Source: Acidimicrobiia bacterium (GTDB taxonomy: Bacteria > Actinomycetota > Acidimicrobiia > IMCC26256 > DASPTH01). Taken from it: DNA of 37,401 nucleotides. Location of the stretch: contig JBBDHW010000016.1 in the NCBI GenBank assembly GCA_040880805.1, positions 1 through 37,401 on the forward strand, in the 5' to 3' direction. The translations under genes were made by a program, and so were the position numbers. Below the pieces are notes generated by a model. The model searched no databases, was not told where the DNA came from, and was given only the letters and a program-made list of their open reading frames with translations. Shown here piece by piece: positions 1,067 to 20,993 of the stretch; the stretch's first letter is position 1, and every line of letters begins with the position of its first letter.

Positions 1067-2620
1067 GTGAGGGACGCGCCGAGAGGTTTCTGGGTCGCGG
1101 CGCGCGCCGAGCCGGAGCGTATTGCCGTCATCGACGCGGCCGAGCATGCCTGGACCGCGGGCGAGATGTTGGCGGGCGCCAACCGGCTCGTCCACGCGTT
1201 GCGCGCGCGGGGCGTGCACGAGGGAGACCCCGTCGCGACGCTCGCGCCCAACCGCGCGGAGCTGCTGCAGACGCTGCTCGCCGTTTTCCAAGCGGGTTGG
1301 CAGTACGTGCCGATCAACACGCATCTGACCGCCGGGGAGGTCTCGTACATCCTCGCCGACTCGGGCGCGAAGGCGCTGGTCGCCGACGAGCAGTACGCGG
1401 CGGTCGCGACCACCGCGGCGGAGACCGCCGGCGTGCCCCGCGACGCGCGCATCGCAGTGGGCACGATCCCCGGCTTCGTCCCGATTGCCGACGCGCTCGC
1501 GGAGCAGCCCGACCGCACTCCCGAGGACCGGGTCGCGGGTGGGTTCATGCAGTACACGTCGGGGACTACGGGACGGCCGAAGGCCGTGCAGCGCGCGCCG
1601 TCGACCATGGACCCCGAGACGCAGGTGGCATTGTTCGGCGCGAACCTGACCCGCTACGACATCGAGCCGGACGGCGACGCCGTGCATCTCGTGACGTCGC
1701 CGATGTACCACATGTCGCCGTTGTCGTTCGGCTACTTCTCGATGCACTTCGAGCACACGGTCGTGCTGATGGAAAGGTGGGACGCCGAGCGCGCGCTCCA
1801 GCTGATCGACCGCTACCGCGTCACCGACGTCGCGATGGTGCCCACCCAGCTCCACCGGTTGATGCAGCTGCCCGAGGAGGTGCGGAAGCGGTACGACGTG
1901 TCGTCGTTGCGCCAGGTGATCCACGCCGCCGCGCCCTGTCCACTCGATCTCAAGCGGCGGCTGTTCGACTGGCTCGGGCCGGTGATCTACGAGTTCTACG
2001 GCGCGACCGAGGGCGGGGGAACGCTTGCGAAGCCGCACGACTGGCTCGCGCATCCCGGCACCGTCGGGAAGCCATGGCCCGGGGCGGACGTCAAGATCTT
2101 CGACGACGACGGCAAGGAGCTGCCGCCCCGGACGGTCGGCACGGTGTACCTGAAGCTCATGGGGGAGTTCGCGTACAAGGGCGATCCCGACAAGACCGCG
2201 GCGAACCGGCGCGGCGACTACTTCACCGTCGGCGACATCGGCGAGCTCGACGAGGACGGCTTCTTGTACCTGCGCGACCGGAAGATCGACATGATCATCT
2301 CGGGTGGCGTGAACATCTATCCCGCCGAGATCGAGGCCGCCTTGCTCTCACACCCCAAGGTCGGCGACGCTGCCGTCTTCGGGGTCCCGCACGACGACTG
2401 GGGTGAGGAGGTCAAGGCGGTCGTGGAGGCGGCACCGGGCGTCGAGCCGTCACCCGAAGTGACTGCCGAGTTGCTCGCGCACTGCGAGGCCAACCTGGCG
2501 CGTTACAAGTGCCCGCGCAGCATCGACTTCACCGACGCCATGCCGCGCGATCCCAACGGCAAGCTCTACAAGCGCACGCTCCGCGACCCCTACTGGGTCG
2601 GCCGCGAGCGCAGCATTTGA
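1067..2620 (+). CDS. Acyl-CoA synthetase (AMP-forming, ANL superfamily)
   Basis: This 517-aa cytosolic enzyme should activate a carboxylic acid with ATP and CoA to an acyl-CoA. The P-loop motif YTSGTTGRPK is at about residues 163-172, the FYGATEGGG adenine/acyl motif follows, and the hinge region has G-D-I-G-E-L-D-E-D-G-F then RKIDMIISGG. The catalytic Lys lies in PNGKLYKR near the C terminus. The GTG start at 1067 is chosen because GGGGGAGG precedes it; the open frame continues upstream to 845 but that part has no family character. It is first in a tight operon with a DUF35 protein, a thiolase-fold protein and a CMD-family protein, so its product probably feeds a CoA-ester degradation route. 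A close paralogue lies at 25826-27403. The acid substrate is unknown. Confidence 0.88.
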   Translation: MRDAPRGFWVAARAEPERIAVIDAAEHAWTAGEMLAGANRLVHALRARGVHEGDPVATLAPNRAELLQTLLAVFQAGWQYVPINTHLTAGEVSYILADSGAKALVADEQYAAVATTAAETAGVPRDARIAVGTIPGFVPIADALAEQPDRTPEDRVAGGFMQYTSGTTGRPKAVQRAPSTMDPETQVALFGANLTRYDIEPDGDAVHLVTSPMYHMSPLSFGYFSMHFEHTVVLMERWDAERALQLIDRYRVTDVAMVPTQLHRLMQLPEEVRKRYDVSSLRQVIHAAAPCPLDLKRRLFDWLGPVIYEFYGATEGGGTLAKPHDWLAHPGTVGKPWPGADVKIFDDDGKELPPRTVGTVYLKLMGEFAYKGDPDKTAANRRGDYFTVGDIGELDEDGFLYLRDRKIDMIISGGVNIYPAEIEAALLSHPKVGDAAVFGVPHDDWGEEVKAVVEAAPGVEPSPEVTAELLAHCEANLARYKCPRSIDFTDAMPRDPNGKLYKRTLRDPYWVGRERSI

Positions 2621-2642: not shown

Positions 2643-3077
2643 ATGGCCCGGATACCGATCGAGGAGGGGTTCTTCCGGATCCCCGACGACCCCGCGGAGC
2701 CACCGCGCCTGCTGGGCAGTCGCTGCCCGAGCTGCGGCGAGGTCTTCTTCCCGCGCCGTCTGGTGTGTGCGAAGTGCCTGCACGAAGGTTGTGAAGACGT
2801 CGACCTGTCGACGCGCGGCCGGCTCTGGACGTGGACGTACTGCCACGCGCCCCTGTTCGGGAAGAAGGACGCCGACGTACCCGGCTACGGCGTCGGGCAG
2901 GTCGACCTCGCGGAGGGGCCGCGGGTCCAGTCGATCCTCCTCGGTGGACCGGACGACTTCGAGATCGGCATGGAGCTCGAGATCGACCTCGAGACGCTGC
3001 GCGAGAACGAGGACGGCGACGAGATCGTGATCTACCGCTTCCGGCCCGCCGCCGAATACTTCAACGGGGTGGCGTGA
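2643..3077 (+). CDS. Zn-ribbon/OB-fold protein (DUF35 family)
   Basis: This 144-aa protein has an N-terminal rubredoxin-like zinc ribbon, with Cys pairs C-P-S-C and C-A-K-C at about residues 28-47, followed by an OB fold (WTWTYCHAP, G-Y-G-V-G-Q-V-D-L, V-Q-S-I-L-L). DUF35 proteins are small obligate partners of thiolase-fold enzymes. The DUF35 domain of ChsH2, for example, binds the aldolase Ltp2 in steroid side-chain breakdown. Here the gene sits directly before a thiolase-fold gene with which it overlaps by 1 nt (TGATG), which strongly suggests the two proteins form a complex. GAGGAG at 2632-2637 precedes GTG 2640 and ATG 2643; I chose the ATG. Confidence 0.87.
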   Translation: MARIPIEEGFFRIPDDPAEPPRLLGSRCPSCGEVFFPRRLVCAKCLHEGCEDVDLSTRGRLWTWTYCHAPLFGKKDADVPGYGVGQVDLAEGPRVQSILLGGPDDFEIGMELEIDLETLRENEDGDEIVIYRFRPAAEYFNGVA

Positions 3078-4258
3078 TGCGGCGCGGGTTGCGGTTCGAG
3101 GGGGTGGCCGTCGCCGGGGTGGGGATGGTGCCCTTCGGCATGCTTCCGGAGCGGCCGATCCTCCACCTCGCGCGCGACGCGGGCTTGCTCGCATTGCACG
3201 ACGCGGAGATGACACTCGCCGACGTCGACGAAGCGTTCGTCGGCTACATCCAGCTCGCATCGATGGTCGGCATCAAGGCCATGAAGGAGCTCGGGCTCAC
3301 CGGCTTGCCCGTCACGCACATCGAGAACGCGTCGGCCACGGGGCTCGTCGCGTTCCGCGAGGCGGCGTGGGCGGTGTCGTCGGGGCGCGCGGATGTCGCC
3401 ATGGCCCTGTGTTTCGACAAGTTCACCGACATGGCGGGCGGCGGCGGTCGGGCCGGGGGTGGACGCGGCGGCGGCCGCGACGTGATCGACGCTCCGATCC
3501 TGCCCGCGTCCTACTTCGCGCTGTGGGCGCAGCGACGCATGCACGACCGCGGCACGAAGCCGGAGCACTTCGCCGCCATCGCCGCGAAGAACTGGAATTA
3601 CGGAGCGGTGTGCCCGACCGCGCATCGACGGTCGGATCACACGGTCACCGTCGACGAGGTGCTCGGCTCGCGCATCGTCGCCGAGCCGCTCACCACGATG
3701 ATGTGCTGCCCGGCCGACGACGGCGCGGCGTGCGTCATCCTCGCTCGTGAGGATCTCGTGCGATCGCGCCAACCGGGCCGCGCGCTCGTGCGGCCACTCG
3801 CGTCGGCACTGCAGTCGGAGACGTACGCGCGCGGTCACACGTTCGTCGGACCGGTCGTGGGTCCGTCGACGATGACGCGCGACACCGCGCGCGAGTGTTA
3901 CGAGGCGGCGGGCTTAGGACCGGAAGACGTGAACGTCGCGTTCTGTCACGACGCGTTCGTGAACGAAGAGCTCGAGTATTACGAGCTGCTCGGGTTCTGC
4001 GCAGAGGGCGAAGGGGACAAGCTCGTGGAGGAAGGCCAGACCGGTCCCGGCGGGCGGATCCCGTTCAACACTGACGGCGGCCTCATCGCGCGCGGCCATC
4101 CGGGTGGGCCGACGGGTCTCGCGCAGATCCACGAGTCGGTGTTGCAGCTCCGCGGCGACGCCGACGGTCGTCAGGTCGACGGCGCGCGCATCGCGCTCGC
4201 GCACCTGGTCGGTGGCGGGAGCATCTGCACCGTGAACCTGCTCGAAAGGACTGACTGA
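3077..4258 (+). CDS. Thiolase-fold protein (lipid-transfer/Ltp type) without the nucleophilic Cys
   Basis: This 393-aa protein has the thiolase two-domain pattern: N-terminal V-A-V-A-G-V-G-M, the active-site region ENASATG at 83-89, C-H-D-A-F, and the C-terminal GHPGGPTG motif. In true thiolases the position held here by Ser86 is a Cys (C-x-S/T-G), so covalent acyl-Cys chemistry looks lost. The GHP histidine is kept. A Gly/Arg-rich stretch at 121-133 is unusual. Ltp2-type retro-aldolases of the SCP2-thiolase family also lack the Cys and need a DUF35 partner. The preceding gene is such a partner, so C-C cleavage by retro-aldol reaction is a reasonable inference and beta-ketothiolase activity is less likely. 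The ATG at 3077 overlaps the upstream stop. The open frame extends upstream to 2831 only as a shadow of the DUF35 gene. Confidence 0.83.
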   Translation: MRRGLRFEGVAVAGVGMVPFGMLPERPILHLARDAGLLALHDAEMTLADVDEAFVGYIQLASMVGIKAMKELGLTGLPVTHIENASATGLVAFREAAWAVSSGRADVAMALCFDKFTDMAGGGGRAGGGRGGGRDVIDAPILPASYFALWAQRRMHDRGTKPEHFAAIAAKNWNYGAVCPTAHRRSDHTVTVDEVLGSRIVAEPLTTMMCCPADDGAACVILAREDLVRSRQPGRALVRPLASALQSETYARGHTFVGPVVGPSTMTRDTARECYEAAGLGPEDVNVAFCHDAFVNEELEYYELLGFCAEGEGDKLVEEGQTGPGGRIPFNTDGGLIARGHPGGPTGLAQIHESVLQLRGDADGRQVDGARIALAHLVGGGSICTVNLLERTD

Positions 4259-4260
4259 CC

Positions 4261-4650
4261 ATGGCGACAACTGAGGAATTACGGGAGGCCGGGCGCGAGA
4301 TCCAGGGACAGTTGTGGCCCGCGACGCGCACGAGCGCGGGCGGGCAGTTCCCCGCGGCGAAGCTCGCGCCCGACTACTTCGACTACGTGCAGCAGACGGC
4401 CTTCGGGATGATCTGGTCGCGGCCGGGTCTGCCGGTTCGCGACCGGTCGATGATCACGGTCGCGATGCTGGCGTCGCTCGGACACCTCGAGGAGCTGCGC
4501 GCGCACCTGATGGGAGCGTTGAGCGTCGGACTGTCGCGCGACGAGCTGGTCGAGGTGCTCATGCAGGTCGCGGTGTACGCGGGCGTGCCCGCGGCGGTCG
4601 CCGCGCTGCGCGTCGCCGCCGACGTGGTCAGCGTCGACGAGAGCGGGTAG
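4261..4650 (+). CDS. Carboxymuconolactone decarboxylase (CMD) family protein
   Basis: This 129-aa, all-helical protein of the CMD/AhpD-like fold has the family core RDRSMITVAMLASLGHLEEL (about 59-78), then H-L-M-G-A-L-S-V-G and a C-terminal E-V-L-M-Q-V-A-V-Y-A-G-V-P. It lacks the CxxC of AhpD peroxidase-reductases, so a redox role is unlikely. True 4-carboxymuconolactone decarboxylases act in the protocatechuate pathway, but most CMD-family members have unknown substrates. The gene starts 2 nt after the thiolase-fold stop and closes the operon, so it probably acts on an intermediate of the same route. It converges with the next gene, with a single base between the stops. Confidence 0.85.
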   Translation: MATTEELREAGREIQGQLWPATRTSAGGQFPAAKLAPDYFDYVQQTAFGMIWSRPGLPVRDRSMITVAMLASLGHLEELRAHLMGALSVGLSRDELVEVLMQVAVYAGVPAAVAALRVAADVVSVDESG

Positions 4651-4651
4651 G

Positions 4652-5530
4652 TCAGTCGACGTTCCACCGGAGCGTGACGTCGCCCTGTCGCTCGGCGGCA
4701 GTCACGAGGTCGCTCCAGTCGTGGTCGCCGAGCCCCGCTGCCATCGCGCCGACGAGCACCTGGAGCAAGGCCGCGCCGGCCGGGGTGGGCACGGCGAGTG
4801 CGCGACCGGTGTCGACGATCAAGCCCATGTCCTTCGCAGCGAGCTCGAGCGCGAAGCTCGTGGGCCGGTCGCGCTGGTCGATCCCCTCGACCATCCGCTC
4901 GAGGTAGAAGTTCGTTGTCCCACCGGTGCGCAGCACCTCGACCGCCGTCTGCACCGGGATGCCAGCCTTCGCGCACAGCGAGAGTCCCTCGAGGCTCGCC
5001 CAGGTGGCGGCGTAGGCGAGGAGGCTGTTCACGAGCTTCATCGTGTTGCCGAGCCCGAGCGGGCCGAGGTGGAACGTGGCTCGACCGAGCGGATCGAGAA
5101 CGGGCCGCACACGCGCGACGGCGTCGTCGTCCCCGCCCACCATGAACATCAGCATGCGGTTCTCCGCGCCGGGTGCGCCGCCCGTGAGCGGCGCTTCGAC
5201 GAGGTGATGACCGGACGCCGTGAGTCGCGTGCCGAGCTCTTGCACCACCCCGGGGTTGTTCGTGGAGAGGTCGACGAGGATCGAGCCGGCGGCCGCAGTC
5301 GTCGTCCACTCGTCTGCCACCTGGCGGACCGCCGACGGCGAGGGCAGCGACAGCATGGTGATCTCGGATGCAGCTCCCACGGCCGCGACCGACGGTGCCG
5401 CCTCGGCGCCCTCGATTGCCTTCACGCGTTCGGCGTCCACGTCGTACACCGTCACCTCGTGACCGTCGGTGACGAGGTTGTTCGCGATGTGGCCGCCGAT
5501 GTTGCCGAGCCCGATCATTCCGACGCGCAT
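4652..5530 (-). CDS. NAD(P)-dependent dehydrogenase, 3-hydroxyisobutyrate dehydrogenase family
   Basis: This 292-aa beta-hydroxyacid dehydrogenase has the Rossmann motif MIGLGNIGGHIANNL at 5-19, a D-L-S-T-N-N-P segment, the substrate-binding EAPLTGGAPGAE, and a GLGNTMKLVNS helix carrying the catalytic Lys. The family oxidises beta-hydroxyacids such as 3-hydroxyisobutyrate or tartronate semialdehyde. Some members reduce succinic semialdehyde or imines, so the exact substrate is open. The ATG at 5530 is preceded by GGGAGGAAT. The open frame continues far upstream (to 6793), but that part is antisense to the amidohydrolase gene and not real. It is monocistronic and diverges from the 5603 gene. 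Confidence 0.88.
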   Translation of the reverse strand: MRVGMIGLGNIGGHIANNLVTDGHEVTVYDVDAERVKAIEGAEAAPSVAAVGAASEITMLSLPSPSAVRQVADEWTTTAAAGSILVDLSTNNPGVVQELGTRLTASGHHLVEAPLTGGAPGAENRMLMFMVGGDDDAVARVRPVLDPLGRATFHLGPLGLGNTMKLVNSLLAYAATWASLEGLSLCAKAGIPVQTAVEVLRTGGTTNFYLERMVEGIDQRDRPTSFALELAAKDMGLIVDTGRALAVPTPAGAALLQVLVGAMAAGLGDHDWSDLVTAAERQGDVTLRWNVD

Positions 5531-5602
5531 GATTCCTCCCGGCGACCTGATACTGGCGTTGAGAGTACGGTCGCGGGTGACGGCGTGCCAATGGAGGACA
5601 TG

Positions 5603-6775
5603 ATGGGCCTTCGCGACCATGTGATCTGCGACAGCGACCTGCACGTGATGGAACCGCCCGACCTGTGGGAGCGCTACATCGACCCCGCGTTCGCCCACGC
5701 GGCGCCCCGCGGCATGTCCGAGCTTCCTCGCGACATGCGGGTCAAGGTGAAGAACTCGGTGATGTTGCGCCTGGGCGCGGTACGGCCCGTCCGCAACACC
5801 GGGACCCGCGCGAGCGGCTGGCGACCGGAGCACGACGACGCGTACGCGGCGTCCGAAGCGCGCGGCTGGGACGCGCAATCGCAGGTGGACGCGATGGACG
5901 CCGAAGGTCTCGACCTCGCGGTGCTGTTCCCGTCGCGTGGCCTCTTCGTGCTCGGCCTCGACAGCGTCGAACAGATGGGGATGGACGGGCTCGAGCCCGA
6001 GTTCGCGAGCGCGATCGCTCGTGCGTACAACGACTGGATGAAGGACTTCTGCAACTTCGCTCCGCACCGCATGTTCGGCGCGGCGATGGTCGCGCCGCAC
6101 GACGTGCCCGGCGCGGTCGAAGAAGCGCGCCGCTCCGTGGAGGAGCTCGGCTTCAAAGCGATCTTCCTCGCGCCCTCCACCGTCAACCGCCGGCCCTGGC
6201 ACCACCCGGCGTACGACCCGCTGTGGGCGGAGATCGAGCGGCTCGACGTCCCCATCTCGTTCCACGGCGGCGGCCAGACGTATCTCACGCCCGACTTCAG
6301 CCTCGGAGTGCTCGACAAGCTGATGCTGTGGCACACCTTCAGCCAGCCACTCGGGATCCAGTTCGTCACGGTGTGCTTCTGCGGCGGCGGGATCCTCGAG
6401 CGGTTCCCGACCCTGCGTGTCGCGTTGCTCGAGGGCAACTGCTCGTGGGCGCCGTGGTTGCTCTACCGCCTCGACGAGCACTACGAGTGGACGGGAGGGC
6501 ACGAAGCTCCCGACCTCACGATGCCGCCGTCGGAGTACTTCAAGCGGAACTGCTGGGTTTCGGTCGAGGCCGACGAGGAACCCGTGCCCCACTTCGTCAG
6601 CACGTTCGGCGACGAGAAGCTGCTGTTCTCGACCGACTACCCGCACGGCGACTCGAAGTACCCGCACGCGGTCGACGCCTTCGACAAGCTCCCGATCTCC
6701 GACGAGAGCAAGGCGCGCATCGTGAGCACGAACTGGGCCGACCTCTACAAGATCCCGCTCACGAAGAACGTCTGA
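5603..6775 (+). CDS. Amidohydrolase_2 family metal-dependent hydrolase
   Basis: This 390-aa TIM-barrel enzyme is of the amidohydrolase_2 (PF04909) type, which includes ACMS decarboxylase, gamma-resorcylate decarboxylase and LigW/LigY-like enzymes. The metal-binding DSDLHVMEPPDLWERY lies at about residues 10-25. A middle histidine is in FHGGGQTYL, and the late Asp is in LFSTDYPHGDSKYP. The chemistry could be C-C hydrolysis, decarboxylation or lactone hydrolysis. I chose ATG 5603 because GGAGG (5593-5597) is 5 nt before it; ATG at 5591 and 5600 are in frame but badly placed. The long upstream open frame is antisense to the dehydrogenase. A paralogue with the same EPPDLWER signature lies at 13091-14251. 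It is followed after 16 nt by the GMC pair. Confidence 0.88.
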   Translation: MGLRDHVICDSDLHVMEPPDLWERYIDPAFAHAAPRGMSELPRDMRVKVKNSVMLRLGAVRPVRNTGTRASGWRPEHDDAYAASEARGWDAQSQVDAMDAEGLDLAVLFPSRGLFVLGLDSVEQMGMDGLEPEFASAIARAYNDWMKDFCNFAPHRMFGAAMVAPHDVPGAVEEARRSVEELGFKAIFLAPSTVNRRPWHHPAYDPLWAEIERLDVPISFHGGGQTYLTPDFSLGVLDKLMLWHTFSQPLGIQFVTVCFCGGGILERFPTLRVALLEGNCSWAPWLLYRLDEHYEWTGGHEAPDLTMPPSEYFKRNCWVSVEADEEPVPHFVSTFGDEKLLFSTDYPHGDSKYPHAVDAFDKLPISDESKARIVSTNWADLYKIPLTKNV

Positions 6776-6791: not shown

Positions 6792-7358
6792 ATGGCGTTG
6801 CACTTCCTGACGGAGCACGAGTACGAGGTCGTCGCACGATGCGCCGATCGGCTCTTGCCGCCCCACGCTGCGTTCGTCGGTGGTGCAGCGGCGGGAGTCG
6901 CCGGCTACGTCGATCTGACGCTCGGCGGGTTCGAATTCGATCCGCCACGAATCTGGGCGGGGGGCCCGTTCTCGGGGCGCTTCGGCGGCGCCGCGACGTT
7001 CGACCAGTTCATCCCCTTGTCACGGGTCGAGGAACTCGCCTGGCGTACGCGCATCGAGGGATCGCGCGGCATCGCGGAACGCGAGTGGAACGGTCCGGTC
7101 CGCGGTTGGCAGGAGATCTACCGCGAGGGGATCGCGATGCTCGCGGACAACTTCCTCGATCTCGCGGGCGAGGAGCAGGAAGCGGCGCTCGATGCGCTCC
7201 CCGAGTTGAAGCAACTGCTGTTCGAGCACGCCTGCGAAGCGTGTTACGGGTCGCCCGAGTACGGCGGCAACCTGGACCTGAACGGTTGGCGCGCGATCGG
7301 ATACGCCGGCGACGTGCAGCCGCGCGGCTGGCGCGACGAAGAGGTCACCAGTGCCTGA
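6792..7358 (+). CDS. Gluconate 2-dehydrogenase subunit 3-like small subunit
   Basis: This 188-aa protein resembles the gamma/small subunit (PF13618) that accompanies GMC-type membrane dehydrogenases such as gluconate 2-dehydrogenase and FAD-glucose dehydrogenase. The evidence is the start TEHEYEVVARCADRLLPP and the C-terminal block YGSPEYGGNLDLNGWRAIGY. Classical members carry a twin-arginine signal and pull the catalytic subunit across the membrane. This one has no signal peptide and no RR motif, so the complex may stay in the cytoplasm. GGAG precedes ATG 6792. It overlaps the following GMC gene by 8 nt (7351-7358), which fits a stoichiometric pair. Confidence 0.8.
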   Translation: MALHFLTEHEYEVVARCADRLLPPHAAFVGGAAAGVAGYVDLTLGGFEFDPPRIWAGGPFSGRFGGAATFDQFIPLSRVEELAWRTRIEGSRGIAEREWNGPVRGWQEIYREGIAMLADNFLDLAGEEQEAALDALPELKQLLFEHACEACYGSPEYGGNLDLNGWRAIGYAGDVQPRGWRDEEVTSA

Positions 7359-9045
7359 CTTCGACGTCGTGATCGTCGGCTCCGGTCCGGGCGGCGCGAC
7401 CACGGCCGACGTGTTGACTGCGGCCGGGAAGTCGGTGTGCGTCCTCGAGAAGGGCCGGAACCATCTGTTGGCGCTGGAGCCACCGTTCGAGAGCCTTGGG
7501 CGCCTCTCGAACGACGAGATCAAGTTCAATCGTCGCCATTTCCTCGGTCCCGACCCGCTGCTCGAACCGCGGACCTACCGACGCGCGGTCGCCGACGGCG
7601 ACCGTATCTTCACGGGCGATGTCAACAACATGCCGTCCACGGTTGGCGGTGCCGGATACCACGCCGACGGCAAGTTGCCGCGCTACCGCGAGATCGACTT
7701 CCGCCTCGCCGGCGAGCTCGGACCGGTTGACGGCGCCGAAGTCGCCGACTGGCCGGTCGACTACGACGAGATCGAGCCGTACTACGCCGAGGCGGAGCGC
7801 GCCATCGGCGTCGCCGGTGACCACACGGGCAATCCGTTTGCGGCCTGGCGCAGCGGCCGGTACCCGATGCCACCCGGCGCCGACATGTTCCTCACGACGC
7901 TCACGGGTCCGGCCGCCGAGACGCTCGGCTATCACCCGTACCGCGCGCCGACCGGTGCCAACAGCGTCCCGTATGACGGCCGGCCGGCGTGCAACAACTG
8001 CGGCTTTTGCGCGTTCTACGGCTGCCCGATCGAAGCGAAGGGCGATCCGGTTGCGCTGCTACGACGCGCATTGCGCACCGGTAACTGCGAGATCCGCCCC
8101 GAGAGCATCGCACTCGAGATCCTGGTCGACAGTACGGGGAAGCAGAGTCGCGGAGTGCGCTACCTCGACGCGGACGGGACGCAACACGAGGTGACGTCGA
8201 ACGCGGCCGTGGTCGCGTGCGGCGCGTTCGAGACTCCACGGCTCCTGCTCCGGAGCGGCATCGGGAACTCTTCCGATCTCGTCGGGCGGTATCTCATGTT
8301 CCACCTGCAGACGATCGTGTTGGGGTACTTCCCGTTTCGACTCCACGCGTACAAGGGCCGCGATGTCACGCACCTCATGGACGATCCGATCGTCGGCGAC
8401 GCGGCGAGTGCAGCGGCTGCGAAGACGGCCGGCGTGCCGTACCTGCGCGGCGGAATCGTCGAACACGGCGGGAGCGGCCACCCGATCGGCGAGGCGCTGT
8501 ACACACCACCTGGGCAACAGCACAGCGCGCGCATGGCGGCGTCGGACCGCCGCGACCGGATGGTCGGCTTCACGATGCAGGGCGAAGATCTGCCGCAAGC
8601 AACCAACCGCGTCGATCTGGATCCCGCCGTCCGCGACGTGTGGGGTCTGCCGGCCGGACGCATCACCTACACGTCGCACGAGCACGATGTCGCGTGTGCG
8701 CACCACTGGGGGCCGCGGCTCGAGGAGGTCCTGCGCCAAGCGGGCGCGCACACCACGTCGTGGCTCACCTCCCCCGGAACTCCTGGTACGCGCGTGCCGG
8801 GCCTCCAGCCGATCTCACGGCACTGGATGGGTACCGCGCGGATGGGTGACGATCCTCGGCGGTCGGTGTGCGACCCGTGGCAACGTCTGTGGGACGTCGA
8901 CAACGTCGTGGTGACCGACTCGTCGGTGTTCCCGACCTCGACCGGATACGGCCCGACGTTGACGCTGGTGGCTCTCGCGGTGCGCGCCGCACGCGCGCTC
9001 GCGGGCATCGAACCGCTGACGTCGGACCGTGCGAACGCGATCTGA
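7351..9045 (+). CDS. GMC-family FAD oxidoreductase (catalytic subunit) with a Cys cluster
   Basis: This 564-aa flavoenzyme has the FAD-binding GSGPGG at 10-15, GGAGYHADGKLPRY (99-112), and the C-terminal GMC block HWMGTARMGDDP followed by T-D-S-S-V-F-P-T-S-T-G-Y-G-P-T-L-T. Four cysteines at 214, 217, 220 and 225 (CNNCGFCAFYGC) form a cluster-like motif. The alpha subunit of bacterial FAD-glucose dehydrogenase binds an iron-sulfur cluster with Cys in a comparable place, so a cluster here is plausible but unproven. It probably oxidises an alcohol or sugar-like hydroxyl and passes electrons to an acceptor. No cytochrome subunit is encoded next door. GTG 7351 is preceded by GAAGAGG inside the small-subunit gene. 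Confidence 0.87.
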   Translation: MPDFDVVIVGSGPGGATTADVLTAAGKSVCVLEKGRNHLLALEPPFESLGRLSNDEIKFNRRHFLGPDPLLEPRTYRRAVADGDRIFTGDVNNMPSTVGGAGYHADGKLPRYREIDFRLAGELGPVDGAEVADWPVDYDEIEPYYAEAERAIGVAGDHTGNPFAAWRSGRYPMPPGADMFLTTLTGPAAETLGYHPYRAPTGANSVPYDGRPACNNCGFCAFYGCPIEAKGDPVALLRRALRTGNCEIRPESIALEILVDSTGKQSRGVRYLDADGTQHEVTSNAAVVACGAFETPRLLLRSGIGNSSDLVGRYLMFHLQTIVLGYFPFRLHAYKGRDVTHLMDDPIVGDAASAAAAKTAGVPYLRGGIVEHGGSGHPIGEALYTPPGQQHSARMAASDRRDRMVGFTMQGEDLPQATNRVDLDPAVRDVWGLPAGRITYTSHEHDVACAHHWGPRLEEVLRQAGAHTTSWLTSPGTPGTRVPGLQPISRHWMGTARMGDDPRRSVCDPWQRLWDVDNVVVTDSSVFPTSTGYGPTLTLVALAVRAARALAGIEPLTSDRANAI

Positions 9046-10422: not shown

Positions 10423-11400
10423 CTATCGCTGGTGATCGCTCTCTCGCGGCGGCACTGCGGTGCCCCGGAAGCAGCTTGCGGAGTATGGGAAGTCTTGCGT
10501 CATCACGTAGTGGTAGGTGGTGACGGTCTTGCCGTCGAGTTGGATCTCGCTGGTGATCCCGTGACATTCGTCGAGGTCCTTGGTGGTGAGGATGTTGTGC
10601 TCCGCGACTTTCGGGCCGGTGATCGGGAAGCCATCCAGCGCGAAGCCGATCACGGTGTGGACCGACGCGTCCTGAATGCACTTGCTGAGCGTGTGGTAGT
10701 GGTACTCGTGGCTCATCTGCGGATGACCGTCACAGCCATCTTGTACTTCCCACGCACCCGCGTCGCGTCCACCCGCGTCGAACGCGTCGAAGAGCGCGAC
10801 GCCGGTGGTCATCACACCGACTTCGCCACTCACGCAGCTCGGAGCGCTCTGCACGGTCGGGTTCGCGTCGAGCGTGTAGGTCAACGACTGGCTCTCGATG
10901 CTGTTCGGGTTCCGGTCGTACTGGTAGGCGGGGTCCGACGGCTGCACGGGGAAGACGCCGGTCGTGTGGTCCCTCGGAAGGTCGTTGGTCGAGATGATGC
11001 GTGAGCTTCCAGTGATCGTGATCGTGTAGCTCGAGTCCCACTGCACATTGCCGGCAACTGCGACCTTCTCGTTGATGTCGTACTCCGTGTTGTCGTTCGC
11101 GAACCACGGGCCGCGCGTTTGCGCTCCGCCACCTCCGCCGGCGGGGACTCGGCACACGTACACGTATCCCTGCTCGGGTTGGTTCTGCCGGGTGTACTTG
11201 CCGTCGCCAACCGGCAGGATCCCGTCGGCGTACTCGTCGCCGTAGTTCTTGTTCGGGTCGAGGGTGAGGCCTGTACCCGACTTCGCGACTGTCGTCGACG
11301 TCGAAGCGGAATCGGAGGACGACGAGTCGCAACCGACGAGCCACAGCCCGTACGCGACGACGAACACCGCCACGAACGCCGCGCGCGCCGCGGCGTTCAC
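10423..11400 (-). CDS. YHYH-domain lipoprotein
   Basis: This 325-aa secreted protein has a hydrophobic signal (AAFVAVFVVAYGLWLVGC) with the lipobox cysteine at residue 24, then a Ser/Thr-rich linker, so it should be anchored to the outer face of the membrane. The C-terminal half has the YHYH-domain hallmarks: H-E-Y-H-Y-H-T-L-S, V-I-G-F-A-L-D-G-F-P-I-T-G-P, E-C-H-G and the closing FPYSASCFRGT. The YHYH family is widespread in marine and soil bacteria and has no assigned function; its His-rich motif suggests metal binding. The GTG start at 11400 overlaps the deacylase stop by 4 nt (GTGA), so it is translationally coupled to an enzyme that looks cytosolic. Confidence 0.82.
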   Translation of the reverse strand: MNAAARAAFVAVFVVAYGLWLVGCDSSSSDSASTSTTVAKSGTGLTLDPNKNYGDEYADGILPVGDGKYTRQNQPEQGYVYVCRVPAGGGGGAQTRGPWFANDNTEYDINEKVAVAGNVQWDSSYTITITGSSRIISTNDLPRDHTTGVFPVQPSDPAYQYDRNPNSIESQSLTYTLDANPTVQSAPSCVSGEVGVMTTGVALFDAFDAGGRDAGAWEVQDGCDGHPQMSHEYHYHTLSKCIQDASVHTVIGFALDGFPITGPKVAEHNILTTKDLDECHGITSEIQLDGKTVTTYHYVMTQDFPYSASCFRGTAVPPRESDHQR

Positions 11401-13094
11401 GCACCGGGCCGCAGGACGCGGCCGGGGCGTGCACCGGTGTCCACGCCGTCGCGGCGGACGAGCACACCGTTGACGACCAGCGCGAGGTAGCCCTCGGCGT
11501 CGACGACGAAGCGTCCGCCGCCTGCGGGGAAGTCTTCCACCCACCGCGTCGCGCCGGCGGCGAGGCGCTCCGGGTCCCACACCACGAGGTCGGCCACCGC
11601 GCCCGGCCGGATAACACCACGGTCGCGCAGCCCGTACAAGCTCGCCGGGATCGCGCTGAGGCGAGCGACTGCCCACTCGAGCGGGAGCGCGTCGGGGACG
11701 TACTCGGTGAGCAGACGCGTCGTGTAGTCGACACCGCAATACGACGACAGGTGCGCCCCGGCGTCGCTGCTGCCCGGGAGCGTGAGGGGGTGCGCCACGA
11801 TCGCCGCGGTTGCCGGGTTCGCGCCTCCACCACGTGATCCGGCGCCGCCCGAACCGGCGAGCGTGAAGACCAGCTCGAGGCCTTCGGCGAGTGACGCGTC
11901 GAGGAACGCGTCGAGCTCGTCGGTCGCTCCGAGGAGCGAGCGCAGCTCGGGAACGCGGAGCCCCACCCAGTCCGGATGGCTGTCGGCGCGCGCTACCTTG
12001 ATGTTGTTCCACCCGAACACGATGTTCCGGCTCTTCGTGTCGGCCCACTGCGCGCGCATCTCGTCGCGGACCGACGGGTCGGTCAAGCGTTGCGCGCGCT
12101 CGGTGGAGGGCAGGGTCAGCGTGTCGCGGAACGCGGGCATCTCGTCGAACAGGAACGTGTCGGCGAGGGCGAAGAACACCTGCAGCTGCTGCGTCGCCGA
12201 CTGTGGGTAGAGACGAGCTCCCGCACGTTGTGCCGCTTCCGCGAACTCGATGCCGGCGCGCCACGCGTCGGGCTGGGTCGGCAGCGGTTGGAGCGGGTTC
12301 ACGTTCATCGGCTTCCCGCTCGCCGCGCACATCGCGAGCATGAGCGCGCGATCGTCGTCCGAATGGCCTTCGAGGTTTGTACGCGAGATGAACTCGAGCG
12401 CACCGCTCGGGAAGTCGGCAAGGGCACCGGCCAACGCAACGAGCTCGTCGTGTGCCGCGAGGTTCGACGGCACGGGCCGGCCGTCGTGAGTGACGTGCAG
12501 GTCGAGCTGCGACGACGAGAAGCCGACCGCGCCGTCGCGCATCGCGTCGTGCACCAGTGCGACCATCGCCGCAACCTCATCGGATGTCGCGGCGCGCTCG
12601 ACCGCCGCGTCGCCGAGCACGTAGCGGCGGACGGCGGAGTGTCCGACCTGGAGCCCGACGTTCACGCCGAGTCCACCGCGTTCGAGATTCGCCGCGAAGT
12701 CAGCGCAATCACCACCACCGAATGTCGCGCCGGTCGCAAGCGTCTCGGGATGCATGCCCTCCACGCGGCTGAGCATCTGCAGGAGCCACGCCACGTCGGA
12801 CGGACGCGCGGGGAACAACGAGAACCCGCAGTTGCCCGTGATCACGGTGGTTACCCCGTGCCATGACGACGGCGACGCGGTTGGGTCCCAGTGCAGCTGC
12901 GCGTCGTAGTGCGTGTGGATGTCGACGAAACCGGGCGCGAGCACGCCACCGTCGGCGTCGAGCTCGACCTCACCGCGCTCGTCGACGCGGCCGACCTGGG
13001 TGATGTACCCGTCGCGAACCGCGACGTCGGCCGTATACGGCGGAAGCCCGCTGCCGTCGACGACCGTGGCGCCGCGCACGACGAGATCGCTCAT
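11397..13094 (-). CDS. N-acyl-D-amino-acid deacylase/D-aminoacylase-like amidohydrolase
   Basis: This 565-aa metal-dependent hydrolase has an N-terminal beta-sandwich start (DLVVRGATVVDGSG), then the metal motif HTHYD at 60-64, the GNCGF motif with Cys89, and the late PGSSDAGAH containing the catalytic Asp. The C-terminal sandwich reads ADLVVWDPERL and LVVNGVLVRR. That order (HxH, bridging Cys, late SDAGAH) is typical of N-acyl-D-amino acid deacylases and related imidase-like enzymes. Many uncharacterised homologues probably use other amides. ATG 13094 overlaps the upstream stop by 4 nt (ATGA). It shares an operon with an amidohydrolase_2, a VOC protein, a YHYH lipoprotein and a regulator. 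Confidence 0.87.
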   Translation of the reverse strand: MSDLVVRGATVVDGSGLPPYTADVAVRDGYITQVGRVDERGEVELDADGGVLAPGFVDIHTHYDAQLHWDPTASPSSWHGVTTVITGNCGFSLFPARPSDVAWLLQMLSRVEGMHPETLATGATFGGGDCADFAANLERGGLGVNVGLQVGHSAVRRYVLGDAAVERAATSDEVAAMVALVHDAMRDGAVGFSSSQLDLHVTHDGRPVPSNLAAHDELVALAGALADFPSGALEFISRTNLEGHSDDDRALMLAMCAASGKPMNVNPLQPLPTQPDAWRAGIEFAEAAQRAGARLYPQSATQQLQVFFALADTFLFDEMPAFRDTLTLPSTERAQRLTDPSVRDEMRAQWADTKSRNIVFGWNNIKVARADSHPDWVGLRVPELRSLLGATDELDAFLDASLAEGLELVFTLAGSGGAGSRGGGANPATAAIVAHPLTLPGSSDAGAHLSSYCGVDYTTRLLTEYVPDALPLEWAVARLSAIPASLYGLRDRGVIRPGAVADLVVWDPERLAAGATRWVEDFPAGGGRFVVDAEGYLALVVNGVLVRRDGVDTGARPGRVLRPGA

Positions 13095-14251
13095 GCCGGT
13101 GCGCGCGCCGCGACGAGCTCCTCGATCCCGTAGAGCCGAGCCGCGTTCTGGCCGAACAGCTTGGCCCGATCGGACGGCTCCATGTCTTCGGTGTGCTCGC
13201 GGAGCTCGTCGACCACACCGGGGTACTTGGCGTCGCTGTGCGGGAAGTCGGACGCCCAGATGAGGTTGTCGGCTCCGGCGAGTCGAGCCATCGCGCCCAT
13301 CGTGTGCTCGCCGGGGTCGAAGCTGACGACGCATTGCCGCTGGAAGTACTCCGTGGGCGAGAGCGAGAGCTTCGCGGTTGCCCACCCGTACGTTTCGAGG
13401 AACTCGTCCATGCGGTCCATCCAGTGCGCGATCCAGCCGCCCCCGCATTCGAGCACCGCGACCTCGAGCGTCGGGTGACGTTCGAGCACGCCCGAGTAGA
13501 CGAGGTTCGAGAGCGTCATGTACTGGTCGAAGAAGAGGATGACCGCGTGGTGCGTACCCGGTGCCATCAGGTCGACCATGCGCTTCGACGTGCCCTCCAT
13601 GTCGAACAGCCCCGCGCCGTGCAGACCGAGCGGGATGCGGTGCTCCTCGAGCGCGTCGTACATCGCGTCGAAGTCGGGATGCCACAGCGGGCGACCGAGC
13701 ACCGGGTTCGGTCGCACCACGCCGGCGCGCAGACCCATCCCGACGACGCGGTGCACCTCGGCCGCCGCCGCTGCCGGATCGTGGGCGGGGAGCACCGCGC
13801 TGCCGACCAGCCGGTCGGGCGCGGCCGACGTCCACTCCGCCATCCAGTCGTTCCAGACCTGGTGGCACGCGACCGCGAGTTGCGGGTCCTGGATCCCGCC
13901 GAGGGCCTGACCGAGTCCGCAATAGAGCACGGCGATGTCGATGCCCTCCTCGTCGAGCACGCGGATGCGCTCGTGGGGATCGAAGCCGGCCGGGTTGCCG
14001 TCCTCGTAGCGCATCGCGCTCGCGAAGTTCTCGTTGTTGTGCATGCCGGCGTTCGTGAGGCCCGCGAGTCCCATCGGGATCCCCACCCGGTCCTCGACCA
14101 GCACCTGCTGGGTCTGGATCTCGTCGTTCCACCGCACGCGCAGACCCTGGTCGCGCATCGAAGGCGGGAGGTTCCGTTCCCAGAGGTCGGGCGGCTCGCA
14201 GACGTGGCCGTCGGCGTCGACGACGATCGGGCGCTCGGTTTCGGTGCTCAC
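13091..14251 (-). CDS. Amidohydrolase_2 family metal-dependent hydrolase
   Basis: This 386-aa TIM-barrel enzyme is paralogous to 5603-6775. The metal motif is DADGHVCEPPDLWERN near residues 12-27. A middle His is in G-L-H-G-A-G, and the late Asp is in IWASDFPHSDAKYP. Like its paralogue it could be a decarboxylase or a C-C/C-O hydrolase of cyclic acids. The GTG start at 14251 has AAGGAG about 8 nt upstream, and the protein begins MSTETERP. It follows the VOC gene by 16 nt and overlaps the deacylase start by 4 nt, so it is inside the operon. Confidence 0.87.
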   Translation of the reverse strand: MSTETERPIVVDADGHVCEPPDLWERNLPPSMRDQGLRVRWNDEIQTQQVLVEDRVGIPMGLAGLTNAGMHNNENFASAMRYEDGNPAGFDPHERIRVLDEEGIDIAVLYCGLGQALGGIQDPQLAVACHQVWNDWMAEWTSAAPDRLVGSAVLPAHDPAAAAAEVHRVVGMGLRAGVVRPNPVLGRPLWHPDFDAMYDALEEHRIPLGLHGAGLFDMEGTSKRMVDLMAPGTHHAVILFFDQYMTLSNLVYSGVLERHPTLEVAVLECGGGWIAHWMDRMDEFLETYGWATAKLSLSPTEYFQRQCVVSFDPGEHTMGAMARLAGADNLIWASDFPHSDAKYPGVVDELREHTEDMEPSDRAKLFGQNAARLYGIEELVAARAPA

Positions 14252-15266: not shown

Positions 15267-17171
15267 TCAGCTACCCGTGTGGCAGCTGCCGTCGGCGCTC
15301 GTGGGTGGCAGGTCGAGCGCGGGGTTCCGATCGAAGAAGCCGAACGGTGAGAGCAGGAACCCGGTGTACTCGACGGGCATGACCGGCCAGTCTTCGGGAC
15401 GCACGAAGTGCGTGACCCCGAACGTGTACCAGAGGACGACGTCGGTGTCGGTTATCGCACGGTCGGCCGCAGTCCAACGCGGGAGCCCGTCGCCTCCTGC
15501 GTGCTGGTTGGGATACTCGCCCGCAGCGCGCCGTTCGTCGCGCGCGTATGGCGTGACCCAGAGGTTGTGACGCGCGAAGCCGGCGCGTTGCCCGACGCTC
15601 GACTCGGGTGACGCGAGCATCGTGGGCGTCGACATCGTGGGGACGAGCTTGTAGCCGACCGGCTGCCCGAGCCGGTTCAGGCGCGATGGGTTGACGACCT
15701 TCCACACGCGGCTCGTCGCGGCATTGACCTCGCGCTGTGCGGCGAGCTCCGTGTCGAGGCGCGTCGACTGCTGCGCGAACGCGTTGCCCCAGGGATTCTC
15801 CGGACCCGTGGGGACCGGTCCCGCCTCGACTTCGTACACGGTGTTGCCGGCGCCGTCGACGTCGAGGTCGAGGCGAGCGGAGAACAAGTGCTGGTGGTGG
15901 GGCGCCGCGAGGCCGGGCGCGATCACGTTCGCAAACTCCGGTTGCTCACCGGGCGCGATCGCCATCGGCGAGACGATACCGGTGAGTTTCACCTCGAGCT
16001 GGATGTTGCCGTCGAGGTAGAAGTACCAGTAGAAGCCGTACTCGTAGTTCCCAACCGTTGAGATGAAGCTGACGACGAGCCGGCGCGAGCGGCGGACTTC
16101 GTTCGTGTTCCCGCGCTGGTCGACATGCTTCCAGAGGATCCCGTAGTCCTCTTCGTGCATGCAGATCGCGTGCTCGACGTTGTACGGCTCGCCCTGCTCG
16201 GTCGCGAGCACGGCGTCGAAGTAGTGGATCTCGCCGAGACAATCGCAACCGAGTTGCAGCGAGTTCGCCATCCGACCGAGGCCCCACTCGCCGGCGTCGA
16301 ACGCGTTCTTCCAGCCGTGCATCGCGCCCGGGTGCCCGTATGGCACCACCATCTCGCACACCGACGCTCGGTGGAGCACGGGCCGGACGCGGTCACCGTC
16401 GTGGTAGGCGACGGTGTGCAACACCAGGCCCTCGTAGGGATCGAAGCCGACGCGGAACGACCACCGCTGCCACCGCACGAGGTTCCCGTCGACGTGGAAG
16501 CTCGGACCCTCGGGCTGGACGATCGCGAGCGGCCTGAGGCCGTCGCGCAGTGGGCCGACGTCTTCGGGGAGGTACGAGCCGCGCTCGGGCGGCAGCGGCA
16601 CCACACCGAGGTCGACGACTTCGAGCACCTCGCCCGCGCCCTGGTCGAAGAAAGCGATGAGCCCTTCGATCGGGCGCGCGTACCCGTTGTCAGCGTCGGA
16701 CTCGCGCAGGTACGCGATGCACCGGCTGATGCGGCGGCCGTCCTCGTGAGCGACGCCGAACGAACCGGCAGGCCACGGGTCGATCTGGACGATCGCATCT
16801 TCGGCGATCCCGCGTCGCCGGAGCGCCGCCTGCCAGCCGGGGTGTGCGGTCACGCCGATGATCGCCGACAGTGACTCGCCGAAGAGCAACGCGGGTCGCA
16901 CACCTTCACACACCGTCCACGAACGGATCTCGCCCGACGTCACCGAGAGGACGACCTCGATGGCGTCGAGCCGGGCACCGGGTGGCACGAGCAGCGCCTC
17001 GATCTCCCGGTCGACGGTCGAGGCATCGGCGTTCTTCGCGGGCTCGTACAACCGCACGTGCACGAACACCGAGTTGGCCTCGAACCGCTGGTCGGCCCGG
17101 ACGATCTCGACCGCCCGGCGGATCTCGTCCGGAGTGACCATGGCCAGCGGGTGCACAGACGTGGTGGTCAT
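15267..17171 (-). CDS. Copper amine oxidase (primary-amine oxidase, topaquinone enzyme)
   Basis: This 634-aa enzyme oxidises primary amines to aldehydes with release of ammonia and H2O2. All active-site residues are visible: the topaquinone precursor Tyr376 in V-G-N-Y-E-Y-G, the catalytic base Asp292 in AFDAGEWGLG, and copper ligands His426 and His428 (H-x-H) and His588 (V-T-H-F-V-R-P-E-D-W-P). Spacing matches the Arthrobacter enzymes, whose length is close to 640. No signal peptide is seen, so it is likely cytosolic as in Arthrobacter. ATG 17171 overlaps the upstream ADH stop by 4 nt (ATGA). Its place after an alcohol dehydrogenase and an SDR suggests the aldehyde is processed further by these neighbours. 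Confidence 0.93.
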   Translation of the reverse strand: MTTTSVHPLAMVTPDEIRRAVEIVRADQRFEANSVFVHVRLYEPAKNADASTVDREIEALLVPPGARLDAIEVVLSVTSGEIRSWTVCEGVRPALLFGESLSAIIGVTAHPGWQAALRRRGIAEDAIVQIDPWPAGSFGVAHEDGRRISRCIAYLRESDADNGYARPIEGLIAFFDQGAGEVLEVVDLGVVPLPPERGSYLPEDVGPLRDGLRPLAIVQPEGPSFHVDGNLVRWQRWSFRVGFDPYEGLVLHTVAYHDGDRVRPVLHRASVCEMVVPYGHPGAMHGWKNAFDAGEWGLGRMANSLQLGCDCLGEIHYFDAVLATEQGEPYNVEHAICMHEEDYGILWKHVDQRGNTNEVRRSRRLVVSFISTVGNYEYGFYWYFYLDGNIQLEVKLTGIVSPMAIAPGEQPEFANVIAPGLAAPHHQHLFSARLDLDVDGAGNTVYEVEAGPVPTGPENPWGNAFAQQSTRLDTELAAQREVNAATSRVWKVVNPSRLNRLGQPVGYKLVPTMSTPTMLASPESSVGQRAGFARHNLWVTPYARDERRAAGEYPNQHAGGDGLPRWTAADRAITDTDVVLWYTFGVTHFVRPEDWPVMPVEYTGFLLSPFGFFDRNPALDLPPTSADGSCHTGS

Positions 17172-18400
17172 GCGCGCTGGTCGAACGCGACCTTGATCGC
17201 GCCGGACTCGTCCTGCGTGGCGAGCGCGGTGAACGCGGTACGCCAGTCGTCGAGCGCGAAGGTGTGCGTGAGCATGTCGGTGAGGTCCACACGGCCGGAG
17301 CTTGCGAGGTCGAGATAGTGGGCGATGCCGTGCTTGCGGACGCCGTCGACCTCTTCGAACCCGAACGCGTTGGAACCGACCCAGCTGATCTCCTTGAAGT
17401 ACAGCGGCGTCCACTCCCATGAAGTCGGTCCGTGCACACCGGCCTTCACGAGTGTGCCGTGCGCCTTGAGCAAGCACACCGATACCTCGAGGGTCTCCTT
17501 CTTCGAGATGGTGTCGTACACGATGTCGATCCCGCCCGGGTACGCCATCGGCAGATCGTGGTTGCCCCGGAGGACACCGCCCGACCAGTCGGCCGCGGCC
17601 TCGATCAGTTCCTTGACCGGCGAGTGGGCGAAGACCGCGCTCGCACCCAACTTGCGCGCGAGCTCACCCTGACTCTCGAAGCGCGCGACGACGCCGACCT
17701 CGACGTTCGGGTAGAGCGCGCGGAGAATGGCGACCGCGCAACTTCCGAGTGCGCCCGAGCCGTACACGAGCGCCTTGCCGTGCGGCGGCGGTGGGTGCCG
17801 CGTGATGCCGTGCAGCGACACCGCGAACGGGTCGGCGAACACCGCGATCTCGTCGCGCACGGAATCCGGCACCGGGAAGAGCATGGAGGGATGCGCGGGC
17901 ATGAGGGTCGCAAACCCCCCGCTCGCGTCCTTCGACGTGCCGGTGTGGATGCCGGGGGCAATCGGTGGGACGGTGAAGTTCCAGCACAGGCTGAGATCGC
18001 CGACCTCGCACGCCGGACAGATCGGTGACACGCCCCGCGGCACGCACGACAGCCAAGGGTTGAGCACGACGCGATCGCCGACCTCTATGCCTTCTGCCTC
18101 GGGTCCCAGCGCCACCACGTCGGCAACGACCTCGTGCCCGGGCACTTGGGGCATCGACGAGAAGTCGCGCATGGGGTTGTCCATGCTCATCTCGCCCCAG
18201 TCCATGAACACCTGCTTGGAGTCCGACCCGCAGACCCCGGTGAGCCTCGGGCGTGTGACCACCCAGTCGGGGAGCAGGAATCCGGGATCGTCCATCTCGA
18301 CGAGGTCCATCGGGGTGCGCGCGAGCGCGGCAATGAGTGGGTTGTCGGTCTCGGGCTGCGGCATCGGCGGGGGTTGAATTCCGTAGAGCAGTGCGCGCAC
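17168..18400 (-). CDS. Zinc-dependent alcohol dehydrogenase (MDR family)
   Basis: This 410-aa medium-chain dehydrogenase has catalytic zinc residues in GVCGSDSKQ (about residue 57) and PGHE, a Cys-rich structural-zinc-like loop (C-V-P-R-G-V-S-P-I-C-P-A-C-E then S-L-C), and the NAD(P) motif YGSGALGSCA. The N-terminal extension (YGIQPPPMPQPETDN) is longer than in classical ADH. It would interconvert an alcohol and an aldehyde or ketone. The GTG start at 18400 has AAGGAG about 9 nt upstream. It is the middle gene of the SDR-ADH-amine oxidase operon. Confidence 0.87.
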   Translation of the reverse strand: MRALLYGIQPPPMPQPETDNPLIAALARTPMDLVEMDDPGFLLPDWVVTRPRLTGVCGSDSKQVFMDWGEMSMDNPMRDFSSMPQVPGHEVVADVVALGPEAEGIEVGDRVVLNPWLSCVPRGVSPICPACEVGDLSLCWNFTVPPIAPGIHTGTSKDASGGFATLMPAHPSMLFPVPDSVRDEIAVFADPFAVSLHGITRHPPPPHGKALVYGSGALGSCAVAILRALYPNVEVGVVARFESQGELARKLGASAVFAHSPVKELIEAAADWSGGVLRGNHDLPMAYPGGIDIVYDTISKKETLEVSVCLLKAHGTLVKAGVHGPTSWEWTPLYFKEISWVGSNAFGFEEVDGVRKHGIAHYLDLASSGRVDLTDMLTHTFALDDWRTAFTALATQDESGAIKVAFDQRA

Positions 18401-18418
18401 GGTCTCGTCTCCTTGTGC

Positions 18419-19216: not shown

Positions 19217-19285
19217 GGTCCCCCCAGTGTCGGTACCGATCGTCGCCGTACCGTACGCGAGATCAGAGGGGATAGCTTCCCGGCA

Positions 19286-20203: not shown

Positions 20204-20214
20204 GCACGGAAACC

Positions 20215-20925: not shown

Positions 20926-20993
20926 CGGCGGCCGGGCCGGCCGTCTGCAGGCCGTAGAGTCAAGGCGGATTTGCGACCAGTGGGAGATCGGCA

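What the first reader, a model, noticed from the sequence alone, without database searches (positions are those of the whole stretch)
2643..4258. Thiolase-fold protein with Ser in place of the catalytic Cys, paired with a DUF35 protein
Seen: Ser86 stands where thiolases have the nucleophilic Cys, GHPGGPTG is kept, a Gly/Arg-rich insert lies at 121-133, and the gene overlaps a Zn-ribbon/OB-fold DUF35 gene by 1 nt. Known: the Ltp2-ChsH2(DUF35) complex is a retro-aldolase built from such a pair in steroid breakdown. Inference: this operon (synthetase, DUF35, thiolase-fold, CMD) encodes a retro-aldol C-C cleavage of a non-steroid CoA ester, possibly a route not yet described.
Basis: partly seen in the sequence, partly recalled or inferred. 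Interest (0 to 1): 0.62.

Follow-up and report, generated by a model that had tools for sequence, protein, structure and literature searches.

The report
Serine-site thiolase-fold carbon-bond cleaver
A bacterium known only from environmental DNA carries a thiolase-like enzyme whose key cysteine has been replaced by serine throughout a conserved branch of the family, next to a gene for an oxygen-using enzyme that may prepare its substrate, which points to an uncharacterised way of cutting carbon chains.

Summary
Ser86 sits exactly where SCP2-thiolases and benzoylsuccinyl-CoA thiolase have the catalytic Cys, and the gene overlaps a four-Cys DUF35 gene by 1 nt. Ser86 is invariant in 36 of 36 clade members from four phyla and is fixed together with E297, Y301, R339 and P345; the clade is monophyletic (97/90).

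Ltp2 and Sal aldolases have Tyr (YDHF, YDCY) and Gly where this protein has His291 (HDAF) and Ser86, and they form a separate clade (100/100). This protein comes from the Cys-bearing SCP2/BbsB side: an independent loss of the Cys.

A retro-aldol reaction still fits best. A conserved module (acyl-CoA synthetase, DUF35, this protein, CMD, HIBADH) includes a PF04909 protein that looks like a PtmU3-type dinuclear oxygenase: all six metal ligands are kept in 11 of 11 sequences, and an oxygenase-type gene lies within 6 kb in 15 of 21 loci. PtmU3 beta-hydroxylates a CoA ester. The main rival, a Ser-nucleophile thiolase, is not excluded: distant relatives sit in beta-oxidation-like operons. No activity or substrate is known.

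The parts
1067..2620 (+). Acyl-CoA synthetase (AMP-binding; FadD4/PRK12406-like); start GTG 1067 is the likely one
   Evidence: Pfam PF00501/PF13193 and NCBIfam; orthologue syntenic in L002 at 77%
2643..3077 (+). DUF35 partner (ChsH2/BbsA-like): Zn-ribbon with Cys28, 31, 42, 45 plus OB-fold
   Evidence: Pfam PF12172/PF01796; PDB 6esq_E, 7pxp_A (BbsA), 6ok1_B; four Cys invariant in 17 aligned sequences
3077..4258 (+). Thiolase-fold protein: Ser86 at the nucleophile site, His291 (HDAF), His341 (GHPGGPTG); clade-specific E297, Y301, R339, P345
3434..3478 (+). Gly/Arg-rich loop (residues 120-134), predicted flexible
   Evidence: (pLDDT<50 at 122-142)
4261..4650 (+). Carboxymuconolactone-decarboxylase-family protein (PcaC-like), 2 nt after the thiolase-fold gene
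   Evidence: PF02627; in 12/21 close loci, 0/95 paralogue loci
4652..5530 (-). 3-hydroxyisobutyrate-dehydrogenase-family oxidoreductase
   Evidence: PF03446/PF14833; in 11/21 close loci, 0/95 paralogue loci
5591..6775 (+). PF04909 'amidohydrolase' that is a predicted dinuclear (diiron or Mn/Fe) oxygenase of the PtmU3/AibH2 type
   Evidence: best PDB hit PtmU3 6omp E=1.8e-37, next four hits are also dinuclear oxygenases; ligands DxH, H, E, DYPH in 11/11 sequences

Best explanation
A DUF35-partnered carbon-carbon lyase that evolved from an SCP2-thiolase-like ancestor by losing its nucleophilic Cys, and most likely works as a retro-aldolase on a beta-hydroxyacyl-CoA. Proposed sequence: the synthetase makes a CoA ester (inferred from family); the PtmU3-like oxygenase hydroxylates its beta carbon, or in some relatives a MaoC hydratase adds water (inferred); the DUF35/thiolase-fold pair then splits the alpha-beta bond, giving an aldehyde or ketone and a shorter acyl-CoA (inferred). 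His291 and His341, kept from thiolases, would stabilise the acyl-CoA enolate. Ser86, with the clade-specific polar residues, would handle proton transfer to and from the beta-hydroxyl without forming an acyl-enzyme. Shown: the Ser substitution and its invariance, the co-fixed residues, the monophyly, the DUF35 pairing, the fold prediction, and the conserved oxygenase-type neighbour with all metal ligands.
For: Ser86, E297, Y301, R339, P345 fixed 36/36 and rare or absent in Cys relatives. Single Ser clade, 97/90 support. Oxyanion-hole His pair kept. The PF04909 neighbour has the six dinuclear-oxygenase ligands in 11/11 sequences, and oxygenase-type genes lie within 6 kb in 15/21 loci. PtmU3 is described as a monooxygenase hydroxylating C-5 of diterpenoid-CoA intermediates and as a beta-hydroxylase. 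Across six genomes PF04909 genes lie near 20/57 Cys-less Tyr-motif (aldolase-type) thiolase-fold genes but only 3/38 Cys-bearing ones (p=0.003 pooled, 0.014 stratified). A MaoC hydratase is in 6/21 loci; an MFE-2-like dehydrogenase in only 2/21. Cys to Ser abolishes acyl transfer in the DUF35-partnered PhlC.
Against: The Tyr base of known retro-aldolases is absent. The phylogeny is on the thiolase side. Distant Ser-clade members sit in operons with a MaoC hydratase and an MFE-2-like dehydrogenase that could make a beta-keto substrate. The oxygenase is missing next to 6/21 close relatives, and the window's oxygenase family also occurs without this enzyme. No structure of a complex and no assay.
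Confidence: 0.45

Rival explanations
1. Ser-nucleophile thiolase: it still performs retro-Claisen cleavage of a (branched) beta-ketoacyl-CoA, with Ser86 forming an oxygen-ester acyl-enzyme activated by His341.
For: Nested with SCP2-thiolase/BbsB; both His kept. Clade-B operons combine MaoC, MFE-2-like SDR, acyl-CoA dehydrogenase and CoA-transferase, as in branched-chain beta-oxidation.
Against: C88S abolishes PhlC activity. The second catalytic Cys (HDCF) is also gone. MFE-2-like SDR occurs in only 2/21 close loci, and its presence does not separate Cys from Cys-less paralogues.
Confidence: 0.28
2. Another CoA-ester reaction on the same fold: C-acylation, decarboxylation, or hydrolytic beta-diketone cleavage.
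For: DUF35/thiolase-fold complexes include Friedel-Crafts acylases (PhlABC), and PDB entry 9skm pairs an ATase C88S variant with C-formylation. A PcaC-like CMD is the next gene.
Against: No PhlA/HMG-CoA-synthase-like third subunit was recognised in the module.
Confidence: 0.17
3. Catalytically dead homologue kept as a CoA-ester binder or subunit.
For: Both catalytic Cys are lost.
Against: His291, His341, Ser86 and several polar residues are invariant across phyla; a dead site would drift.
Confidence: 0.1

Closest known systems
SCP2-thiolase (zebrafish type 1, PDB 6hsj/6hrv)
   Same: Closest solved relative by sequence (E about 2e-59) and by predicted fold (rank 1, TM about 0.85); HD motif and GHP His
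   Different: Has the nucleophilic Cys and the HDCF Cys; here Ser and Ala
Benzoylsuccinyl-CoA thiolase BbsAB (PDB 7pxp)
   Same: DUF35 partner, HDAF motif, HxxGGG C-terminus
   Different: Cys nucleophile; Ala instead of Glu297; long branch outside the Ser clade
Ltp2-ChsH2(DUF35) and Sal-Shy(DUF35) steroid retro-aldolases (6ok1, 9myr)
   Same: Cys-less thiolase fold with a DUF35 partner; a hydratase neighbour in some loci
   Different: Tyr base (YDHF/YDCY) and Gly at the Cys site; separate clade with 100/100 support
PtmU3 and related PF04909 dinuclear oxygenases (for the neighbour at 5591-6775)
   Same: Best PDB hit; the same six ligand positions
   Different: Substrate and metal unknown here

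Membership tests
SCP2-thiolase / thiolase | Thiolase fold | tested here: met
SCP2-thiolase / thiolase | Nucleophilic Cys (CxS/CxT motif) | tested here: not met
   Ser in 36/36
SCP2-thiolase / thiolase | Second catalytic Cys (HDCF or CxG) | tested here: not met
   HDAF; HLVGGG
SCP2-thiolase / thiolase | Oxyanion-hole His of HD and GHP motifs | tested here: met
   His291 and His341 invariant
SCP2-thiolase / thiolase | Thiolytic activity | not testable with these tools
   needs assay
Ltp2/Sal retro-aldolase | No nucleophilic Cys | tested here: met
Ltp2/Sal retro-aldolase | Catalytic Tyr of YDxF/Y | tested here: not met
   His291 in every Ser-clade member; Tyr essential in Sal
Ltp2/Sal retro-aldolase | Phylogenetic placement in the Ltp2/Sal clade | tested here: not met
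   aldolase-like clade 100/100 excludes it
Ltp2/Sal retro-aldolase | DUF35 partner | tested here: met
   adjacent gene; 20/21 close loci; physical complex not tested
Ltp2/Sal retro-aldolase | Retro-aldol activity | not testable with these tools
   needs assay
PtmU3-type dinuclear oxygenase (gene 5591-6775) | Ligands DxH, H, E, DxxH | tested here: met
   11/11 sequences
PtmU3-type dinuclear oxygenase (gene 5591-6775) | Dinuclear metal site and O2-dependent hydroxylation of a CoA ester | not testable with these tools
   needs protein

The most novel reading that the evidence does not exclude
A third, independently evolved Cys-less branch of DUF35-partnered thiolase-fold enzymes that uses Ser and His instead of Tyr. 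It is coupled to a dinuclear oxygenase, so that O2-dependent beta-hydroxylation of a CoA ester replaces dehydrogenation and hydration before retro-aldol chain cleavage. This would be a general oxygenase-lyase route for substrates blocked against beta-oxidation.
Probability: 0.35. Interest if true: 0.72.

Novelty: new variant of a known kind. Interest (0 to 1): 0.5.

Why it matters
Thiolase-fold genes without the Cys are abundant in the environmental Actinomycetota and Myxococcota examined here, and automatic annotation calls them thiolases or lipid-transfer proteins. A conserved Ser-based clade with its own residue signature means that some of those annotations are probably wrong. The pairing with PtmU3-like oxygenases suggests a testable way of degrading branched or cyclic acids that ordinary beta-oxidation cannot handle.

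Tried and rejected
(1) Direct kinship with Ltp2/Sal: rejected by motif and tree. (2) Reading the PF04909 neighbour as an amidohydrolase or decarboxylase: rejected because dinuclear oxygenases are its top hits and all six ligands are present; my first translation of it (5602 start) was out of frame and was redone from 5591. (3) Using an MFE-2-like dehydrogenase neighbour to decide between Claisen and aldol: it does not discriminate (1/38 vs 3/57). (4) A MaoC hydratase elsewhere in the same genome: only split, order-swapped halves at 44-50% identity on another contig, not the module's orthologue. (5) Phylogenetic profile of the window's oxygenase family: found with the Ser enzyme in three Myxococcota genomes but also without it in others, so the link is by synteny, not strict co-occurrence. 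(6) Papers on DitZ and on the PtmU3 structure: not held or not found. (8) Distances between active-site residues: model coordinates are not readable here.

Full report
OBSERVATION. DUF35 is 2643-3077 and the thiolase-fold protein 3077-4258, both on +, sharing one nucleotide. The synthetase ends at 2620 and the CMD gene starts at 4261, so synthetase, DUF35, thiolase-fold and CMD look like one transcript. Residue 86 is Ser in HIENASATG. It aligns with the catalytic Cys of zebrafish SCP2-thiolase and of benzoylsuccinyl-CoA thiolase BbsB, and the HDCF/HDAF and GHP motifs align in register. The Gly/Arg stretch is residues 120-134, inside a loop with pLDDT below 50 (122-142). It varies in length among orthologues and is unlikely to carry the chemistry.

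IS SER86 REAL AND MEANINGFUL? A scan of bacterial genomes returned 30 loci, and genome searches and plasmid records added more. In 36 sequences of the clade (Acidimicrobiia, Myxococcota and other 'Deltaproteobacteria', Sphingomonadales, Paraburkholderia, Gammaproteobacteria, Dehalococcoidia) Ser86 is invariant. E297, Y301, R339 and P345 are also fixed in 36/36 and occur in at most one of nine Cys-bearing comparison sequences, while R154 is 35/36. More distant Ser-type proteins from Pseudosulfitobacter and Rhodococcus plasmids keep S86 and E297, and keep the other signature residues only in part. Fixation of several polar positions along with the Cys-to-Ser change argues for changed chemistry, not decay.

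WHERE IT BELONGS. A maximum-likelihood tree of 52 rows gives one Ser clade (97/90) on the side of SCP2-thiolase and BbsB. The Ltp2/Sal/4u4e group, with seven paralogues from the same genome, forms its own clade (100/100). The Ser column was left in the tree, but it is one of 394 columns. BbsB, Sal and two paralogues have long branches, so their exact place is uncertain. The known aldolases have Gly at the Cys site and an essential Tyr in YDHF (Ltp2) or YDCY (Sal). The window protein has Ser and His. The AlphaFold model (mean pLDDT 85.7) matches SCP2-thiolase first, then BbsB; Ltp2 and Sal rank 30 and 33. The DUF35 partner keeps four Zn-ribbon Cys in all 17 aligned sequences.

SURROUNDINGS. Close relatives (62-84% identity, with L020 at 49% over a frame-broken copy) share a module: DUF35 in 20/21 loci (the other is a contig end), CMD 12/21, HIBADH-family oxidoreductase 11/21, acyl-CoA synthetase 9/21, MaoC hydratase 6/21. 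CMD and HIBADH of this type lie near none of 95 other thiolase-fold genes in six genomes. The most telling neighbour is the PF04909 gene at 5591-6775. Its best solved relative is PtmU3 (E=1.8e-37), and the next four hits are also dinuclear oxygenases, ahead of decarboxylases. Its six ligands (DxH, H, E, DYPH) are intact in all 11 aligned sequences of this subfamily, matching the ligand set described for AibH2 and PtmU3 (PMC7782822). That 8SM7-8SM9 and AibH2 are dinuclear oxygenases is from PMC10811679. An orthologue lies in 11/21 loci; with other oxygenase-type PF04909 genes the figure is 15/21. In L014 and L023 a different oxygenase subfamily takes the same place, in L014 directly upstream of DUF35.

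WHY A RETRO-ALDOL. PtmU3 hydroxylates C-5 of diterpenoid-CoA intermediates (PMC10127204) and is called a beta-hydroxylase (PMC7782822). That this sets up A-ring cleavage is from my own recollection of the PtmU3 paper, which is not held. A tertiary beta-hydroxyacyl-CoA made this way cannot be oxidised to a ketone and would have to be cleaved by retro-aldol. As a control, PF04909 genes lie within 5 kb of 20/57 Cys-less Tyr-motif (aldolase-type) thiolase-fold genes but only 3/38 Cys-bearing ones in six genomes (p=0.003 pooled; 0.014 when shuffled within genomes). With a strict ligand pattern the counts are 9/57 and 1/38 (p=0.038). The signal comes mainly from the window's own genome. So these oxygenase-type genes tend to accompany Cys-less members, and the window's close relatives follow that tendency. 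In PhlC, another DUF35-partnered member, Cys-to-Ser abolishes activity (PMC6392133). That is hard to reconcile with Ser simply doing the Cys job.

WHAT SPEAKS AGAINST. A more distant Ser group (43-56% identity; L019, L021, L022, L073-L077, and Diaphorobacter sp. HDW4B) sits in operons with MaoC, an MFE-2-like dehydrogenase, acyl-CoA dehydrogenases and CoA-transferases, with an oxygenase-type gene in only 1/11. That looks like branched-chain beta-oxidation, which would call for thiolysis. The dehydrogenase is not a reliable marker, since it does not separate Cys from Cys-less paralogues, but the rival remains open. The window's oxygenase family also occurs in genomes without this enzyme.

STATUS OF EACH STEP. 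Shown by sequence: Ser substitution, signature, monophyly, DUF35 pairing in the genome, conserved module, oxygenase ligands. Inferred: CoA-ester activation, beta-hydroxylation, retro-aldol cleavage, roles of individual residues, the physical complex. Unknown: substrate; steroid versus other cannot be decided. The genome holds 21 thiolase-fold hits, including Ltp2-like ones.

VERDICT. A real, conserved subfamily for which I found no published characterisation in the papers searched. The evolutionary route (Cys lost independently on the thiolase side) and the oxygenase neighbour are the new points.

Noticed in passing
13091-14251 (-) and 11397-13094 (-): A second PF04909 gene with the same dinuclear-oxygenase ligands (DxH, H, E, DFPH) sits next to an Amidohydro_3 gene; the pair is also conserved in L001 and L008 beside the Ser-type module.
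   Followed up: partly
G000 whole genome: 87 first-look candidates for PF04909-type proteins and 21 thiolase-fold hits in a 3.5 Mb genome: an unusual expansion of possible oxygenases and thiolase-like enzymes.
   Followed up: partly
L078 8574-9500 (G000 contig C47): A MaoC double-hotdog protein split into two genes in swapped order, near a Cys-less thiolase-like gene, an enoyl-CoA hydratase and a P450; resembles a ChsH1-ChsH2-Ltp2 style locus.
   Followed up: no
L027 8001-9129: In Diaphorobacter aerolatus the clade-B Ser-type gene matches in three pieces in different frames, so this copy looks broken.
   Followed up: no
L014 6251-7558: A different PF04909 oxygenase subfamily lies about 15 nt upstream of DUF35 in the same orientation, an apparent replacement of the window's oxygenase.
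   Followed up: partly
6792-9045: Gluconate-2-dehydrogenase subunit 3-like gene overlapping a GMC oxidoreductase, directly after the oxygenase; not found at the other loci, so probably a local addition.
   Followed up: no
15267-22262: Copper amine oxidase, SDR, luciferase-like monooxygenase, alpha/beta hydrolase and P450 genes further along the window.
   Followed up: no
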